Source: Lewinella sp. LCG006 (GTDB lineage: Bacteria > Bacteroidota > Bacteroidia > Chitinophagales > Saprospiraceae). From it: a stretch of 64,000 nucleotides of DNA. Every line of letters starts with the position of its first letter. The stretch's first letter is position 1. Positions 42,527 to 50,343 of the stretch are shown one piece after another. The notes beneath the pieces are model-generated. The model worked only from the letters and a program-made list of their open reading frames with translations, was not told the origin of the DNA and did no database searches. A program made the position numbers and the translations under genes. Where the stretch lies: contig NZ_CP160680.1 of the NCBI RefSeq assembly GCF_040784935.1, positions 1,913,501 to 1,977,500 of the forward strand, given 5' to 3'.

Positions 42527-42979
42527 CTACTTCTTACTCTTCGCTTGCTTCACGTAGGGATTGTCGGTAATCCGATGTGTCATTCGGGCTTCTTCTTCTC
42601 TACGGATATCCGTTTTAGCGGTCAGGCTCTTGGTGGTTGTGGGTACCGCTAGCAAGCGCCGTTTGTCAATCAGTTCACCGGTGATTAAACAGACGCCGTA
42701 GACCTTGTTTTTGATTCTCATCAAAGCATTGTTGAGGTCCACGAGGTACTTGCGTTGCCGGATCGCCATGTTGTTGAGCATCTCTATATCATTGTTGGTA
42801 GCACTGTCGTCTACCCAATCTCCTCCATGATCGTCACTAGAGTTTTCAGAGATTTCCATGATCTGACTCTGCAGGCTTTCGAGCTGCTCTTCGGTCTGTT
42901 CCAGTTTCTTTTCAATCAGGATCCGGAATTCTTCCAGGTCTTTGTCTGAATAGCGTGTGATGTTTTCTTTATTGGCCAT
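42527..42979 (-). CDS. TraR/DksA-family protein with degenerate zinc finger
   Basis: The 150-residue protein has an N-terminal coiled coil (EEFRILIEKKLEQTEEQLESLQSQIME) followed by a DksA-like acidic helix and C-terminal domain (ALMRIKNKVYGVCLITGELIDKRRLLAVPTTTKSL). In classical DksA the finger carries two CxxC pairs; here only C97 remains and the partner positions are Thr or Lys, so zinc is probably not bound. This cysteine-poor version seems intact rather than broken. DksA-type proteins bind the RNA polymerase secondary channel and adjust transcription. I prefer ATG 42979 (MANKENI) to the in-frame 43009 start. Confidence 0.85.
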   Translation of the reverse strand: MANKENITRYSDKDLEEFRILIEKKLEQTEEQLESLQSQIMEISENSSDDHGGDWVDDSATNNDIEMLNNMAIRQRKYLVDLNNALMRIKNKVYGVCLITGELIDKRRLLAVPTTTKSLTAKTDIRREEEARMTHRITDNPYVKQAKSKK

Positions 42980-43009
42980 AAATTCAGGCTTTTTTAATGA
43001 TCGCCGCAA

Positions 43010-43419: not shown

Positions 43420-46400
43420 ATGAAAATAAGAGTTGGTATCTTTTTTGGCGGTCCTTCCCGTGAGCGGGAAATTTCATTTGCAGGCGGGCGAACGGTTTAT
43501 GACAACCTCAATCAAAGCATTTTTACGCCGGTACCCATTTTTGTAGACAGCCATCGCAACTGGGTCTTGCTCGACTGGGAGTACATCTATAAAGGTAGTA
43601 TTCGCGACTTCTTCCCTCCTGTAGACAGCTTGCCTCCTTCGGCCAACCATTTTCAAATTTATGCCGAAAGTATCGCCGGGTTGGACGATGCGGCACAACA
43701 AGCACTGCTTGCGAAAATTGGTCAGCCATTGGCCCCAGAGCATTTGCATCAATACATCGATGTTGCTTTTCTTTCCCTACACGGGATTTATGGCGAAGAT
43801 GGTGAGCTGCAAAGCATCCTCGAAACGCTCAAAATACCTTATACCGGTAGCGGTGTTGAAGCCAGTCGGATCGGGATGGACAAAGCCTGGCAAAAACGCC
43901 TCATGCATGAAAAGGGGTTTGCCTGCCCAATCGTTAAGGTATTGGATAAAAAAGGCTGGCTCAGTGCCGATCTTCAGGCATTGTACGAAGAAGCGAGTCA
44001 GCAAATCGGCTTTCCACTCGTCATCCGCCCTGCCAATCAGGGGTCTTCTATTGGTGTGAGTATCATTGAAGAAAGCGAAGGCCTGGAAGGTTTTGAGATG
44101 GCGGTCAATCGTGCTTTTTTCCGCGAGTTGATTCCACTGGGTGAATGGCACGATCGTACACCTTTTGACCGCATAGAATACGTAAAAGCATTGGGCGACA
44201 TCCGCGAGGGGCTTGGCTTCCCGTTGAGGATCACGCTTGGACAGCAGCAGGAACTCATCTACCATCCGGAAGCCCTCCTCGACTTTTTGAATACAGCAAC
44301 CAACAACGCCGAGCACCTTAGCCAGCTTTTCGTTTTGGAAGCAGCACAATCAGAGCAGCAAGTTATTCTAGAGGCTTTCATCAGCGGGCAGGAGTTTTCT
44401 TGTATTGTTATGCGTGCCGAAGATGGTTCATCAATTGCCTTACCTCCGACCGAAATCATCAAGGGGGGAGAGGTCTTTGACTATCGCTCTAAATATATGC
44501 CTGGTCTTTCCCGCAAGGAAACCCCGATCAACCTACCTAATGAAGCCATTGAAGCGATCCGGCGACAATGCGAAAGTTTGTTCAACAAGCTGGGCTTCCA
44601 GGTTTATGCCCGTATTGATGGCTTTTATACCCCAGAAGGCACCATCTTCCTGAATGACCCGAACACGACTTCGGGAATGCTACCCAGTTCCTTCTTCTTT
44701 CATCAGGCTGCTGAAATTGGCCTCAATCCAAGCCAGTTTCTTACGCTCATTATTCGCTTGTCTCTCCAGGAACGCTGTAGTGACCAGCCTCAAAACGAAC
44801 AATGGCGAGCCCTGCTGCAACGTCTGGACACGGCTATTGGCAGCCTTCAAACAGAGCGGCAACAGCAGCGCAAAATTGGCGTTATCCTCGGCGGCTATTC
44901 CTTTGAACGCCATATTTCGGTAGAGAGTGGTCGGAATATTTTCGAAAAACTTTCCAGCTCTGTCGACTTTGCTCCTATACCTGTTTTCCTCACCGGGTCG
45001 GATCGTCAACACGAGTTGTATCAGCTGCCCATCAATCTGCTACTCAAAGACAATGCAGATGACATCAAGGATAAAATTGGCAACTGGAAGAGCCACCCGG
45101 TACTGAATAAAATCAGACTAGAATGCGCGCCAATCACCAAAAAATACGCGTCGGCTGATGTTATTTTTGCACCAGAAAAACTGACGTACGACAGCCTTGC
45201 CAAAAAGGTTGACGGCGTATTCATAGCACTCCACGGGCGCCCCGGAGAAGATGGCCAAATTCAGATTGAGCTTGAAGCGCGGCAGCTTCCCTACAATGGG
45301 TCAGGGATTAAATCTTCCAGCATTACCATTGATAAATACCGGACTTTGCAGCTCTTGGGCCAACACGGGCTGCCCGTTGCCAACCAGTTGTTGCTGAGTA
45401 AAAATGATTACCTCGTAGATAAGGAAACTTTCTTTCAGCGCGTAGAGAAAAACTTTGTGTACCCACTGGTTGCCAAACCGGTAGATGACGGGTGCAGCTC
45501 GGCGGTGAAGGTGATTCGCAATCGAGAACAATTGGCCGCCTACAGCGCGCTTATTTTCCAGGAAGATCAGGACAACGAACGCGAACAGCGGCATATTCTC
45601 AAACTGAAAGTCAAGGAAGAGTTTTCTCAAAAAGATGAAATTCTCTTTGAGCAATTGGTGACCAAGGAAGAAGGTATTCATTTCCTGGAAGTGACCGGAG
45701 GTATGCTTACTTCTTACGATGATAATGGTCAAATCCAATACGAGGTTTTTGAGCCCAGCGAAACCCTCGCCAGTGGTGAAGTACTGTCGCTAGAAGAAAA
45801 ATTCCTCGCTGGTGAAGGCCAAAACCTTACGCCCGCACGTCTGGCAGTAGGGAGCTATACCTATCAGCAACTTTTGCCTCAAGTGCAGCAAACCCTGGAG
45901 CGTGTAGCTCGTCTCCTGCAAGTGGAAGGCTATTGCCGAATTGATGCTTTTGTGCGAGTTCTGGCCGATGGCAAAGTGGAAACACAGGTCATCGAAGTCA
46001 ACTCCTTACCCGGGATGACCCCCGCTACCGCCATTTTTCATCAGGCTGCACTTGCTGGTTATAAACCTGCGGTATTTATAAAGAAAGTTTTAGATTATGG
46101 CTTTGCCCGCCAGGCTAAACATACTTCATCGGTAGTAGTCTCTCCTCCAGTAGTGGAGCCCCAAAATATCGCTCCTGTCGCTGCACCAAGCGAAGTGCCC
46201 ACCGCTCCTATTGCGAAAACAACACGTATCAACACTATGGAAAACAAATCTGACATACCGGTTAAAACCGTTAGCCTGACTAAAGGAAAATGGTGGCGAC
46301 AATTACTGGATTTTCTTCAAACCGGTTATTTTCTGAAAAACCTGGCAGCCATGCTGGCTGTATTGCTCTTCAGCTTTTTGCTGCTGAACGTTTTTCTTCG

Positions 46401-47187
46401 CCTTTACACCAATCACGGCAATGCCGTACAGGTGGAGAATTACGAAGGTATGAGCATTGACAATGCGACCAAAAAAGCCCGGGCTCGTGGCTTCAAGGTG
46501 AGTGTAAATGAGTCGCCTTTCGATTACAGCACCTTGCAAGGAGAGGTCGTAGATCAAGAACCAGCTGCCCTAAGTCGCATCAAAAAGAACAGAACCATTT
46601 ATTTAACCATCGTAGGAGCACCAAAAGAAGTAACAATTCCTTCTTTTGAGGACGCTGCCGATGATTACAGCCAGTATCGCCCGAAGCTCCGTCCTCTGCA
46701 AGTGAAAGCAGCCATCAAAGAAACCATTTTTGATGCCAAGCTAGCAGACAGTACCATCTTGCATTTTTATTACGAAGGGCGTAAGTACACTCCTTCTGAT
46801 GTAAAAAGAGGTGTAAAAGTGCTGCAAGGAAAAACGCTGGAGTTTGTGATTACCAAGAAACAGGATGATTACGTTGCTACACCAGCATTGAAGTGCAAGC
46901 GCTTCAGTGAAGTGCAGTTTCTTTTGCCAGGCCTTGATTTACAGGTTGGAGAAATCGTGGGCGATGTTGCCAATCGTGCCGATGCCTATGTTTATATGCA
47001 GGACCCCGAATATCGCCCAGGAGGTAAAATCCTGCGCGGGTCTACCATCAAAATTTATCTTCAGGAGGATCTCCCTGCCGGCTGTACGGAAGATGTAGAA
47101 ATCAATGAGCCTCCTAGTGATAGTGGCGGCTTCCCTTCTGATGCCGAAGACAACGTGCCATCAAGAGACAGCATCGGCGGGAAGTAA
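43420..47187 (+). CDS. Double D-Ala-D-Ala-ligase / membrane / PASTA fusion protein
   Basis: This 1255-residue product starts with two complete D-Ala-D-Ala-ligase (ATP-grasp) modules. Module 1 (about 1-455) has FFGGPSREREIS, LHGIYGEDGELQ, VIRPANQGSSIGV and a deviant metal-site segment LNDPNTTSGM. Module 2 (about 485-915) has LGGYSFERHIS, LHGRPGEDGQIQ, VAKPVDDGCSS and a canonical EVNSLPGMT. A Pro-rich linker leads to a membrane helix (about 973-995) and PASTA-like repeats (about 1000-1210). M940 (46237) could be an internal start giving a stand-alone 316-aa PASTA protein. The likely role is making D-Ala-D-Ala for peptidoglycan at the membrane. Confidence 0.85.
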   Translation: MKIRVGIFFGGPSREREISFAGGRTVYDNLNQSIFTPVPIFVDSHRNWVLLDWEYIYKGSIRDFFPPVDSLPPSANHFQIYAESIAGLDDAAQQALLAKIGQPLAPEHLHQYIDVAFLSLHGIYGEDGELQSILETLKIPYTGSGVEASRIGMDKAWQKRLMHEKGFACPIVKVLDKKGWLSADLQALYEEASQQIGFPLVIRPANQGSSIGVSIIEESEGLEGFEMAVNRAFFRELIPLGEWHDRTPFDRIEYVKALGDIREGLGFPLRITLGQQQELIYHPEALLDFLNTATNNAEHLSQLFVLEAAQSEQQVILEAFISGQEFSCIVMRAEDGSSIALPPTEIIKGGEVFDYRSKYMPGLSRKETPINLPNEAIEAIRRQCESLFNKLGFQVYARIDGFYTPEGTIFLNDPNTTSGMLPSSFFFHQAAEIGLNPSQFLTLIIRLSLQERCSDQPQNEQWRALLQRLDTAIGSLQTERQQQRKIGVILGGYSFERHISVESGRNIFEKLSSSVDFAPIPVFLTGSDRQHELYQLPINLLLKDNADDIKDKIGNWKSHPVLNKIRLECAPITKKYASADVIFAPEKLTYDSLAKKVDGVFIALHGRPGEDGQIQIELEARQLPYNGSGIKSSSITIDKYRTLQLLGQHGLPVANQLLLSKNDYLVDKETFFQRVEKNFVYPLVAKPVDDGCSSAVKVIRNREQLAAYSALIFQEDQDNEREQRHILKLKVKEEFSQKDEILFEQLVTKEEGIHFLEVTGGMLTSYDDNGQIQYEVFEPSETLASGEVLSLEEKFLAGEGQNLTPARLAVGSYTYQQLLPQVQQTLERVARLLQVEGYCRIDAFVRVLADGKVETQVIEVNSLPGMTPATAIFHQAALAGYKPAVFIKKVLDYGFARQAKHTSSVVVSPPVVEPQNIAPVAAPSEVPTAPIAKTTRINTMENKSDIPVKTVSLTKGKWWRQLLDFLQTGYFLKNLAAMLAVLLFSFLLLNVFLRLYTNHGNAVQVENYEGMSIDNATKKARARGFKVSVNESPFDYSTLQGEVVDQEPAALSRIKKNRTIYLTIVGAPKEVTIPSFEDAADDYSQYRPKLRPLQVKAAIKETIFDAKLADSTILHFYYEGRKYTPSDVKRGVKVLQGKTLEFVITKKQDDYVATPALKCKRFSEVQFLLPGLDLQVGEIVGDVANRADAYVYMQDPEYRPGGKILRGSTIKIYLQEDLPAGCTEDVEINEPPSDSGGFPSDAEDNVPSRDSIGGK

Positions 47188-47316: not shown

Positions 47317-49869
47317 ATGAAAGTAATAGCTACGACCTGCTTCTTTGCGCTCTTGACCACACTTGCTTACGGACAAAAAGAAGTTGATCTCACCTCTAAC
47401 CCCAGGATAGAGGCCCATTTTGCCAGTGAACAACGTGCACTTGGCATTCTTTCTGACGATACCGCCGTATCTCTTCCGAAGACCTCCTGTTATTCACCTG
47501 CTGATCCGGATGTTATTCCGGTGCTTGCTGGACAAACAGTTCGCATCAAGATAAATTTTGACACCACCGGCTTGGGAGCCAATGGTTATTACGAATGTAA
47601 CAATTGTAATAGCCTCGTAGCTGGTGCAGCGGGTATCGTGACAAACACCAACAGCGAACCTGTAGATAGCCTTTTCTTCATGGCCAATCTCGGGGTTGAA
47701 GCGGCTACAGAAATAGTAGAGATCCGCTATTGCAACGAAGATGGCTCGGTATGTACAGAAGAGGCCATCACCTACACTTTTCTAGCACGCCGCCCCGGAG
47801 GTAATGATTACCCACCAGCCATTACCGTCCAGCCGGAAGAAGCGATCAACCTGGAGATTCCGCTCAACCTCCCGGGGACACTCACCTGCAATTTCTTCGG
47901 AGACTGCCCTGACATATATGAAGGCCGTGAACAACTGGCCTACTTCACAGATTATTCCGGGCCTGTCAACACCATGGTTTACAAGGCTAGCCGTGTCGAC
48001 GGTTTGGATTCTCTTTGTGTTGTACTCTGTGATGACAATGGTATATGCGATACCACCCACTACGCCTTCCGAATCAATGTAAGCAGTATTTTACCTCCTT
48101 TTTATGATGATTTCTCCTACGACAGCCCTGTCCCGGCAGCGGGCCTCTGGCTAGACAAGGAAGTTTATGTCAACACAGAAATGCCCTTCAATCCGCGATC
48201 AGTCGGAGTAGCCACCTTTGATGGGCTCAGCAACCGAGGGCGCCCTTACGGCAATGGTTACGGCCCCGCTGACCGGCTGACCTCCACTTACCTGAATACC
48301 ATCAATGGCAACTGGATGCTTTCTTTTTGGTTGCAACGTGGTGGTATTGCCGATCGCCCAGAAATACAGGATTCACTGGTATTGCAATTTCGCGACGAGG
48401 AAGATGACTGGATTTCCGTCATGTCTTTCGAGGGGATCTCTCCCAACGTTCCATTTAATGAAAGAGATACTTTTCAGTTTTATTCTGTGCCGGTTTCCGC
48501 TGATTATCAGCACGATCGTTTTCAATTCCGTTTTGTGAATTACAATGATCGTAATGGTATTCGTGACAATTGGCACCTGGATTACGTCCGTCTTGACAAC
48601 AACCCCACCGGTAGCCAGGATTTCAACGATATCGCTTTTACTTACCCTCCTGATTTTATTCTCGAAAATTACACCAGTATGCCCTGGCGGCATTTCCAGC
48701 CGCAGCTCGATGTAGAATTGCGACGCAATATTGCCGTAGGCGTTTACAACCATTTTGCCACGGATCAGAATGCAAGTCCATCTAGCGCAGCCATCGAAGA
48801 ATTGAATACCGGCATCAATCCTTTTGGCGCAGTACCTACCCTTTTCAATGGTTTGGAAACCAATGTTGCCGCACAAGAAAGCATATTCAAAGGTTATAAT
48901 CTGCAAGGAGACCCTTCCGGGTTTAGTAATGTTTATGACAATTACGCGGCACAGATGGGCAGTGCAGATTTTGATGGTTTTGACGCTTTGGACTTTCGCT
49001 TATCCTACAGTTTGAACAACACTTCTCAGGAAGGATTGGATTTTGTACAGCGCAATGACGAGGTAAGCAGAACCACGCATTTTGGCGACTATTTTGCCTA
49101 CGACGATGGCTCTGCCGAAAGTGCTATCCAAACCAGTTCCAACCGCCAGGTAGCAATTGTCTATACCGCAGCCGTTGCTGATACCATTCACGGCGTACAA
49201 ATGCATTTTGCGAATGCCAATGTTGATTTTTCTGATCAACAGTTTCGCTTGCGTATCTGGATTGGAGAATTGGATGATAGCCCGGAGTACAGCCAGATTT
49301 ATACCCCTGTGTACGCCAGTGCTTTTTTTGATACACTGCAAGGCTTCACCTCTTATCGCTTGTTGGATGAAAATGGTGATCTGGCTCCCCTGGGTATTCC
49401 AGCGGGCACCTTCTATGTAGGTTGGCAACAAGCATCAACCTGTGCTTTTTCAGAATGTATCTCTATTGGTTACGACCGCAATCGCCCTCAGGCAAAAGAA
49501 TTTATTTTTGCAGACAATGGTACCGGGTTCGCGCCTATTTCTGGAGTTACGGATGGAGCCCTCATGTTGCGTCCTTATCTCAGCAGCGATATTGGTGTCA
49601 CCTCCGTTGAGTCCGTTGCGGCAAATAAGGCAATTGCATTAAAGCTCTTCCCCAACCCTGCCAGCTCACAACTATTTTTGAGAACCAGCTTGGAAGATAC
49701 CAGCAATACCCAACTTATTATTTACAATAGCACCGGGCAACAAGTCTTCCGCCAACCTTTTGCGGAGGTCATAAATATCACTAACTTGTCTGCCGGGATG
49801 TACTTCGTTCAACTGCAAGGAGTTGACGGTAACCTAAGTACGCCTGAACGCTTAATTGTAATTAAGTAA
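47317..49869 (+). CDS. T9SS-secreted protein, type A sorting domain
   Basis: The 850-residue protein has a signal peptide (about 1-19, ending AYGQ), Cys-containing N-terminal beta domains (SCYSPADP, YECNNCNS, TCNFFGDCPD), and a jelly-roll/MAM-like beta-sandwich near 265-430 (PPFYDDFSYDSP...DNWHLDYVRLDN). The C-terminal sorting domain starts LKLFPNPASSQLFL and ends GMYFVQLQG...RLIVIK. It is probably attached to the cell surface. No catalytic motif was recognised. It starts 129 nt after the Ddl-PASTA gene. The stop codon touches copy 2 of the 157-bp repeat. Confidence 0.88.
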   Translation: MKVIATTCFFALLTTLAYGQKEVDLTSNPRIEAHFASEQRALGILSDDTAVSLPKTSCYSPADPDVIPVLAGQTVRIKINFDTTGLGANGYYECNNCNSLVAGAAGIVTNTNSEPVDSLFFMANLGVEAATEIVEIRYCNEDGSVCTEEAITYTFLARRPGGNDYPPAITVQPEEAINLEIPLNLPGTLTCNFFGDCPDIYEGREQLAYFTDYSGPVNTMVYKASRVDGLDSLCVVLCDDNGICDTTHYAFRINVSSILPPFYDDFSYDSPVPAAGLWLDKEVYVNTEMPFNPRSVGVATFDGLSNRGRPYGNGYGPADRLTSTYLNTINGNWMLSFWLQRGGIADRPEIQDSLVLQFRDEEDDWISVMSFEGISPNVPFNERDTFQFYSVPVSADYQHDRFQFRFVNYNDRNGIRDNWHLDYVRLDNNPTGSQDFNDIAFTYPPDFILENYTSMPWRHFQPQLDVELRRNIAVGVYNHFATDQNASPSSAAIEELNTGINPFGAVPTLFNGLETNVAAQESIFKGYNLQGDPSGFSNVYDNYAAQMGSADFDGFDALDFRLSYSLNNTSQEGLDFVQRNDEVSRTTHFGDYFAYDDGSAESAIQTSSNRQVAIVYTAAVADTIHGVQMHFANANVDFSDQQFRLRIWIGELDDSPEYSQIYTPVYASAFFDTLQGFTSYRLLDENGDLAPLGIPAGTFYVGWQQASTCAFSECISIGYDRNRPQAKEFIFADNGTGFAPISGVTDGALMLRPYLSSDIGVTSVESVAANKAIALKLFPNPASSQLFLRTSLEDTSNTQLIIYNSTGQQVFRQPFAEVINITNLSAGMYFVQLQGVDGNLSTPERLIVIK

Positions 49870-50025
49870 TTTGACGGAAATAACTGATTCCATTTTTTTC
49901 AACGATTCGCGAATATTTTCACGCAAGCTCCTTTTAGTTGCTTGCTTAGAAAATTTTAGCGAATCAAACCTGCCTACCTGCGGTACGCAGGCAGGAATGG
50001 AATCAGTTATTTTTGATCCGTCACT
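49869..50025. repeat. 157-bp dispersed palindromic repeat, copy 2
   Basis: The same length as 36011-36167 with about three substitutions. The first base is the last base of the preceding TAA stop, and the end lies 15 nt before the rhodanese ATG. Both copies are in the same orientation, each between two plus-strand genes. Confidence 0.95.
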
Positions 50026-50040
50026 AAATAGAGATTTGCT

Positions 50041-50343
50041 ATGGATATCAGCGTAAAAGACCTCAAAGCCCGCATGGATGCCGGCGATCAGGATTTTGTT
50101 TTAATTGACGTGCGGGAACCCGGTGAACACGATGCCTTCAACATTGGAGGAACACTGATCCCCGTAGGCACCATCGCTGGCGCATTGGACGATCTGGAGG
50201 AGCATAAAAACAGTGAGGTCATTGTTTACTGCCGTAGTGGTGCTCGTAGTGGTATGGCACAAGGATTTTTACAGCAGGCAGGCTTCAAGAATGTTCGCAA
50301 CCTGACCGGAGGCATGATGGCCTGGCAGGCCATGCAGGGATAA
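50041..50343 (+). CDS. Single-domain rhodanese-like sulfurtransferase
   Basis: The 100-residue protein is one rhodanese domain: LIDVREPGEHDAFNIGG (about 21-37) and the active-site loop YCRSGARSG with nucleophile C64, ending NLTGGMMAWQAM. It carries persulfide sulfur between donors and acceptors in the cytoplasm. There is no signal peptide. It is preceded immediately by the 157-bp repeat, which must lie in its leader if it is transcribed with the T9SS gene. Confidence 0.92.
   Translation: MDISVKDLKARMDAGDQDFVLIDVREPGEHDAFNIGGTLIPVGTIAGALDDLEEHKNSEVIVYCRSGARSGMAQGFLQQAGFKNVRNLTGGMMAWQAMQG

What the first reader, a model, noticed from the sequence alone, without database searches (positions are those of the whole stretch)
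43420..47187. Ddl-Ddl-TM-PASTA fusion: membrane-tethered double D-Ala ligase
One frame encodes two full ATP-grasp ligase modules, a membrane helix and extracytoplasmic PASTA-like repeats. PASTA modules usually sense peptidoglycan or lipid II, so the fusion could couple external cell-wall state to D-Ala-D-Ala synthesis. Module 1 has deviations (VIRP for VKP, LNDPNTTSG for EVNxxPG) and may be regulatory or use another amino acid; module 2 looks canonical at the metal site. I know of no described protein with this plan.
Basis: partly seen in the sequence, partly recalled or inferred. Interest (0 to 1): 0.78.

Follow-up and report, generated by a model that had tools for sequence, protein, structure and literature searches.

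The report
Membrane-anchored double cell-wall ligase
In one group of Bacteroidota the enzyme expected to make the D-Ala-D-Ala building block of the cell wall is a tandem double enzyme that appears to be anchored in the membrane and joined to wall-binding-type domains outside, and relatives that carry a replacement enzyme keep the joined protein in a form whose active sites are broken.

Summary
The ORF is real: 1255 codons (43420-47187), two Ddl modules, one membrane helix, a PASTA ectodomain, conserved in related genomes. It carries the only two Ddl N-terminal domains in a complete 7.5 Mb Lewinella-type genome. It arose in steps: an unfused double Ddl is frequent in the order, mostly beside a TM-PASTA gene; one fusion joined them (36 fused genomes examined, one clade, no split seen). 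In 52 genomes with an intact double no other Ddl was found, and 18 of 19 surveyed positions per module are invariant (module 2 incomplete in two). The modules differ: module 1 K144R (most) and E270D; module 2 S150C, Y216F, S281T. All 10 examined genomes with a double plus a separate canonical ddl have a fused double with broken sites in an open frame; parsimony gives 5 state changes. In two congeneric decayed pairs the dead modules still look constrained (dN/dS 0.03-0.19). Best reading: the sole, membrane-tethered D-Ala-D-Ala ligase, turned into a retained pseudo-ligase in several lineages. Sensing by PASTA is untested. Double Ddls are known in plants; my searches listed no membrane-tethered or PASTA-linked Ddl.

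The parts
43420..47187 (+). Fused gene: double D-Ala-D-Ala ligase, membrane helix, PASTA ectodomain; 1255 codons plus stop
43420..44859 (+). Ddl module 1 (residues 1-480): K144R (R203), E270D (D413), N272 kept (N415), E15/S150/S151/K215/Y216/R255/D257 kept
44872..46113 (+). Ddl module 2 (residues 485-898): K97, K144 (K686), D257, E270 (E859), N272 (N861) kept; S150C (C692), Y216F (F795), S281T (T870)
46114..46341 (+). Fast-evolving linker and juxtamembrane part; contains M940 (46237), not conserved beyond the genus as a possible start
46342..46398 (+). Single predicted membrane helix (residues 975-993), N-terminus inside by the positive-inside rule
46426..47088 (+). PASTA ectodomain (first repeat 1003-1064 by Pfam; whole stretch resembles multi-PASTA ectodomains)
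47317..50343 (+). Conserved downstream neighbours: a large secreted-type protein (47317-49869) and a rhodanese-like protein (50041-50343), in the same order after the PASTA part in L. cohaerens, G265, G006, G009 and G032
   Evidence: names and matching by eye, no family search run

Best explanation
This is most likely the cell's only D-Ala-D-Ala ligase: a tandem, two-site Ddl anchored in the inner membrane by a helix shared with a periplasmic PASTA ectodomain. Both ATP-grasp modules are probably active and work as a covalent counterpart of the usual Ddl dimer, with specialised, non-identical sites. PASTA, by binding wall or its precursors, most likely holds D-Ala-D-Ala synthesis next to the membrane steps of wall synthesis. 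Shown: frame, domains, no other Ddl found in this genome, invariant sites where the double is the only Ddl found, one fusion, and decayed sites in the fused genomes that also have a separate ddl. By rule: topology. Inferred: catalysis by both modules, dimer-like packing, localisation by PASTA. In lineages with a separate ddl the ligase part lost its sites but stayed attached as a pseudo-ligase, which suggests a second, non-catalytic role.
For: Sole Ddl: 2 PF01820 matches in G000, both in this ORF; of the 7 other PF07478 hits I read five, which by eye are biotin-carboxylase-like, CarB-like or another ATP-grasp frame, and left two weak ones unread. MurF is present over its cut-off, so a user of D-Ala-D-Ala exists. 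Sites: of 63 doubles aligned, all 52 intact complete module-1 rows are identical at 18 of 19 surveyed positions (K or R at 144) and all 51 intact complete module-2 rows at 18 of 19 (only 282 varies). All 52 of those genomes have exactly two PF01820 matches, i.e. no other Ddl found. Decay: all 10 doubles whose genome has a separate ddl have broken sites, and all 10 separate ddls keep the canonical string. Within genus g45, G117 and G177 are intact without a separate ddl, while G173 has one and is decayed: module 2 is 50% identical to the intact ones against 80% between these, PASTA unchanged. Fusion once (36 fused rows one side of a branch, 94/93; 98/98 on 21). Adjacency of ddl and TM-PASTA genes before fusion.
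Against: No biochemistry. AlphaFold of the double failed (pLDDT 48.5, pTM 0.29, five-row alignment), so dimer-like packing is untested. Module 2 carries substitutions at S150 and Y216 that may alter or lower D-Ala-D-Ala activity. No test here shows that PASTA binds anything or affects the ligase. The link between decay and a separate ddl is not 62 independent cases: parsimony gives 5 changes, 3 forced by well-supported branches. Loss of constraint beside a separate ddl would occur whether or not PASTA does anything for the ligase. 'No other Ddl' rests on one domain model, and a few of the 52 genomes are drafts of 75-90% completeness (G011, G029, G030).
Confidence: 0.62

Rival explanations
1. 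Neutral fusion. An active double Ddl and a PASTA protein were joined once by stop loss between adjacent genes; each part works alone and the tether has no role. Dead ligase modules persist in some lineages only because the needed PASTA part has its start codon upstream of them.
For: Unfused double and PASTA genes are often adjacent, in G016 in one frame separated by a single stop (904 + stop + 282 aa). Family genomes with one PF01820 match have PASTA in a short frame of its own and no double found at E 1e-10: 39 of 41; likewise G019 against its congener G265. In G173 the modules decay fast while PASTA does not. In g60 the dead modules are about three times less constrained than PASTA.
Against: In two genera whose modules are dead, those modules still look selected: g60 dN/dS 0.165 and 0.187 (PASTA 0.059), g19 0.058 and 0.034 (PASTA 0.041; dS near saturation); intact pairs in that call range 0.021-0.185 for the modules. 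No fused lineage among 36 was seen to shed the modules or split.
Confidence: 0.3
2. Division of labour by substrate: module 1 makes D-Ala-D-Ala and module 2 joins D-Ala to another acceptor such as D-lactate or a different D-amino acid.
For: Module 2 has Phe at the Y216 position (KF) and Cys at S150 in all 51 intact complete rows. Phe instead of Tyr in the active site determines depsipeptide instead of dipeptide activity in lactic acid bacteria (PMC5996685, abstract and passages); that this is the same position as Y216 is recalled.
Against: Module 2 also differs at G153 and S281, which the D-Lac ligases are not known to share (recalled). The whole protein is far below the D-Ala-D-Lac ligase models. 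A D-lactate supply or a matching dipeptidase was not looked for. No biochemical data.
Confidence: 0.12
3. Only one module is catalytic; the other is an ATP- or D-Ala-binding regulator even in intact forms.
For: Each module departs from consensus: module 1 at K144 and E270, module 2 at S150, Y216 and S281.
Against: The ATP, metal and substrate positions of both are invariant across the intact doubles, and both modules are altered in each of the 10 decayed ones; K144 is still Lys in 7 of 52 module-1 rows.
Confidence: 0.15
4. Sequencing or assembly artefact joining separate genes.
For: None found.
Against: 36 fused genomes, open frames throughout.
Confidence: 0.01

Closest known systems
[quoted passage not shown] TIGR01205, E. 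coli DdlA/DdlB)
   Same: Both modules match the family; most catalytic positions kept; presumed reaction and place in the pathway
   Different: Known Ddls are single-module soluble proteins (recalled); here two diverged modules (24% identical to each other), predicted to be membrane anchored and joined to PASTA
Plant chloroplast DDL (fusion of two DDLs, found throughout the plant lineage; PMC9954125, passages seen)
   Same: Tandem double Ddl in one polypeptide
   Different: No PASTA part is mentioned in the passages seen; common ancestry with the bacterial double could not be tested (no plant sequence at hand). PMC9434261 (passage) says the moss Ddl is closest to homologs in the Fibrobacteres-Chlorobi-Bacteroidetes group
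MurC-Ddl fusion (NCBIfam NF011171)
   Same: A Ddl fused to another protein of the pathway
   Different: Partner is a Mur ligase; this protein is far below that model's cut-off (173.4 against 1015 bits)
PASTA Ser/Thr kinases (PrkC, PknB, StkP)
   Same: Cytosolic enzyme, one membrane helix, PASTA ectodomain
   Different: Enzyme is a wall-precursor ligase, not a kinase
D-Ala-D-Lac ligases of lactic acid bacteria
   Same: Phe in place of the active-site Tyr, as in module 2 (PMC5996685)
   Different: Module 2 is otherwise distinct and depsipeptide activity is untested

Membership tests
[quoted passage not shown]
   153.7 and 186 bits; TIGR01205, 359 bits over cut-off 245.65 for the whole protein; each module alone is below that cut-off: 218.6 and 149.9
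[quoted passage not shown]
   departures K144R, E270D (module 1), S150C, Y216F, S281T (module 2); which E. coli residues matter is recalled
[quoted passage not shown]
   indirect only: no other Ddl found in the genome and decay where a separate ddl is present
PASTA-ectodomain membrane proteins | PASTA repeat(s) after a single membrane helix | tested here: met
PASTA-ectodomain membrane proteins | Binding of peptidoglycan, muropeptides or lipid II | not testable with these tools
   none
PASTA Ser/Thr kinase | Cytosolic kinase domain | tested here: not met
   no kinase domain listed; NF033483 matches with profile positions 338-562 only
Depsipeptide (D-Ala-D-Lac) ligase | Phe in place of active-site Tyr | tested here: met
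   module 2 only, 51 of 51 intact complete rows
Depsipeptide (D-Ala-D-Lac) ligase | Passes the curated D-Ala-D-Lac ligase models | tested here: not met
   NF000206 gives 178.2 bits against cut-off 550 for the whole protein; the other D-Ala-D-Lac models listed are also far below
Plant-type double DDL | Common ancestry with plant DDL | not testable with these tools
   no plant sequences in the collections

The most novel reading that the evidence does not exclude
A new class of one-component wall sensor: PASTA reads wall or lipid II state outside and directly tunes a D-Ala-D-Ala ligase on the same polypeptide. In lineages that acquired another ddl it evolved into a catalytically dead, ATP-binding pseudo-ligase receptor. 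Five of ten decayed forms (G004, G023, G021, G160, G259) keep module 2's K97, K144, E180, E187, D257, E or D at 270 and N272 while losing acceptor-side residues.
Probability: 0.2. Interest if true: 0.88.

Novelty: new variant of a known kind. Interest (0 to 1): 0.63.

Why it matters
D-Ala-D-Ala synthesis is normally thought of as a soluble, unlocalised step. Here a bacterial lineage seems to depend on a membrane-bound form physically joined to a wall-binding-type ectodomain, which would make a link between wall state and precursor supply directly testable on one protein. The repeated turn of the same protein into a retained pseudo-ligase, in genomes with a separate ddl, is a natural experiment on how enzymes become non-catalytic scaffolds or receptors. 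The bacterial double Ddl is also a comparison for the puzzling double DDL of plant plastids.

Tried and rejected
Internal start at M940: a Met is present in the linker of 23 of 36 fused proteins, absent in 13, and not enriched; an earlier view that it was missing in G003 came from an alignment cut short and is withdrawn. Structure of the double: pLDDT 48.5, not used; no fold search run on it. TM-PASTA model: pLDDT 64, pTM 0.31, used only as weak support for PASTA. Rooting the duplication: m1, m2 and the single Ddls each form one side of a branch (99, 100, 85), but the tree is unrooted with long branches, so whether m1 and m2 are sisters is open. dN/dS by Nei-Gojobori is close to saturation for many pairs, and the g19 values are rough. 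Fisher test (p 1.3e-11, on 50 against 10, before two more genomes were checked) ignores relatedness and is not relied on. Phylum survey with module 2 at E 1e-30: 4 of 296 genomes, two of them in another order (G332, G420; no other Ddl), so the double is not confined to the home order. Not examined for active-site residues: G112 and G210 in the family (doubles, no other Ddl) and 23 of the 33 genomes outside it with two PF01820 matches (hand count of 73 of 248 with two or more matches in all; its match list was truncated, so these are not all confirmed as doubles). G240 has two matches but no double was found. Of 14 unfused doubles, 11 have TM-PASTA right beside them; G039 has it on another contig, none was found in G014, and G030 ends at a contig edge; in G231 it lies about 14 kb away. 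Rows dropped: G034 module 1 and G030, G104 module 2 (contig ends); G015 (masked stretch) and a third G163 hit among the singles; in the module tree also the eight decayed doubles then known and six intact near-duplicates. G012 and G038 had no Ddl hit (drafts of 91 and 57% completeness). Genomes with a separate ddl on a short contig (G023, 4 kb) could be contaminated; G160 has both genes on one 8.4 Mb contig. Literature: searches showed no bacterial double Ddl or Ddl-PASTA fusion in the titles and abstract beginnings listed; most subscription papers are not held, so this is not proof of absence.
Full report
OBSERVATION. The window holds one uninterrupted ORF, 43420-47187 on the plus strand, 1255 codons. 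Pfam finds two Ddl N-terminal and C-terminal pairs and a PASTA repeat at 1003-1064. NCBIfam gives TIGR01205 359 bits for the whole protein; each module alone is below that model's cut-off (218.6 and 149.9 against 245.65). There is one hydrophobic segment, residues 975-993, more basic on its N-terminal side, so the ligase part should be cytosolic and PASTA periplasmic. The frame is conserved in other assemblies: Lewinella cohaerens 87%, two metagenome assemblies 72% and 70%.

ONLY DDL. The window lies in a complete 7.5 Mb genome. PF01820, the Ddl N-terminal domain, matches twice, both times in this ORF. Of the seven other PF07478 hits, the five that I read are by eye biotin-carboxylase-like (L002, L003, L007), CarB-like (L006) and an unassigned ATP-grasp frame (L004); two weak hits were not read. 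MurF is present over its cut-off, so the usual user of D-Ala-D-Ala exists.

ORIGIN. Among 40 genomes (this one included), 24 have a double Ddl (my reading; G034 is split over contigs and G030 partial), 14 only single ones, and 2 drafts none. Ten of the 24 are fused to PASTA. Of the 14 unfused ones, 11 have a TM-PASTA gene right after them, in G016 in the same frame after one stop; the three exceptions are in Tried and rejected. Single ddl genes may also sit beside PASTA (G033, G037, and divergently G032). The order PASTA, large secreted-type protein, rhodanese-like protein is kept across fused and unfused genomes (by eye). Order-wide, up to 73 of 248 genomes have two or more PF01820 matches (hand count). 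A phylum sample found module-2-like matches in 4 of 296, two of them in another order, again next to what looks by eye like a TM-PASTA gene. In the PASTA trees the fused proteins are one side of a branch (98/98 with 21 fused rows; 94/93 with 36), so one fusion explains all, and no split was seen.

ACTIVE SITES. E. coli DdlB positions (importance recalled) were read in 63 doubles. Of 52 intact complete module-1 rows all keep EHEGK[R/K]SSEEKYRDDNGSF at positions 15, 63, 68, 70, 97, 144, 150, 151, 180, 187, 215, 216, 255, 257, 270, 272, 276, 281, 282; of 51 intact complete module-2 rows all keep EHEGKKCSEEKFRDENGT[C/A/V]. So module 1 has K144R (45 of 52) and E270D, module 2 S150C, Y216F, S281T. 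All 52 genomes have exactly two PF01820 matches, that is no other Ddl found; in 50 of them module 2 is complete too.

DECAY WITH A SEPARATE DDL. Ten genomes in seven genera (G004; G021, G160, G259; G023; G173; G236; G163; G196, G223) have a separate single ddl, and in all ten the double has broken sites. The ten separate ddls all keep the canonical string (eight, two). All ten decayed doubles are of the fused form, with open frames. Of 41 family genomes with one PF01820 match, 39 have PASTA in a short frame of its own and no double found at E 1e-10; the other two are G196 and G223. Within g45, G117 and G177 (no separate ddl) are intact and G173 (separate ddl) is decayed: its modules are 61-67% and 50% identical to the intact ones against 81% and 80% between these, PASTA 75-79% against 75%. 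Parsimony on the PASTA tree gives 5 changes of state, at least 3 forced by starred branches.

RETENTION. In the two genera with paired decayed genomes the dead modules still look constrained: G196-G223 dN/dS 0.165 and 0.187 at pS 0.37-0.39, against PASTA 0.059 and their separate ddl 0.072; G160-G259 0.058 and 0.034, PASTA 0.041, separate ddl 0.040, at pS about 0.7 (rough). Intact pairs in that call range from 0.021 to 0.185 for the modules. So the ligase-derived part is not simply rotting, at least there. In g60 it is about three times less constrained than PASTA, which leaves room for the neutral reading. Five of ten decayed forms keep module 2's ATP and metal positions but lose acceptor-side ones; G173 instead keeps most of module 1's, with E68A, K215D and G276P; the other four lose most of both.

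MECHANISM. Most likely the protein is the working D-Ala-D-Ala ligase, held at the membrane. Two modules in one chain would stand in for the Ddl dimer (inference; structure prediction failed). PASTA resembles kinase ectodomains, and PASTA kinases are described as sensing wall state (abstract beginnings, PMC8528326, PMC7286690), so it could hold or tune the ligase at sites of wall synthesis. That last step is untested. Phe in place of the active-site Tyr in module 2 is the mark of depsipeptide ligases in lactic acid bacteria (PMC5996685, abstract and passages), which keeps open a different acceptor for module 2.

COMPARISON. Plants have a double DDL (PMC9954125, passages), so a tandem Ddl is not new in kind. 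A Ddl tethered to the membrane and joined to PASTA was not found in the searches listed under Tried and rejected. Hence: new variant of a known kind.

Noticed in passing
L144/L195 (G332), L145/L196 (G420): Intact double Ddl outside the home order, next to what looks like a TM-PASTA gene, with Lys at the module-1 K144 position and no other Ddl; may be the older state.
   Followed up: partly
L010 (own genome 7217758-7217916, minus strand): The only other PASTA hit of the genome lies in a penicillin-binding-protein-like frame (by eye).
   Followed up: no
G012: A draft genome, 91% complete, with the PASTA gene but no Ddl N-terminal hit.
   Followed up: no
window 42527-43009 (minus strand): DksA/TraR-like small protein (by eye) divergent from the fused gene; also upstream of it in L. 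cohaerens (L011).
   Followed up: no
G019 and G265 (same genus g17): One has an intact unfused double, the other a single DdlA-like gene and no double: possibly a recent whole replacement.
   Followed up: partly
window 46114-46341 and linkers of fused relatives: Linker between module 2 and the membrane helix evolves fast and varies from about 34 to 115 residues among fused proteins.
   Followed up: partly
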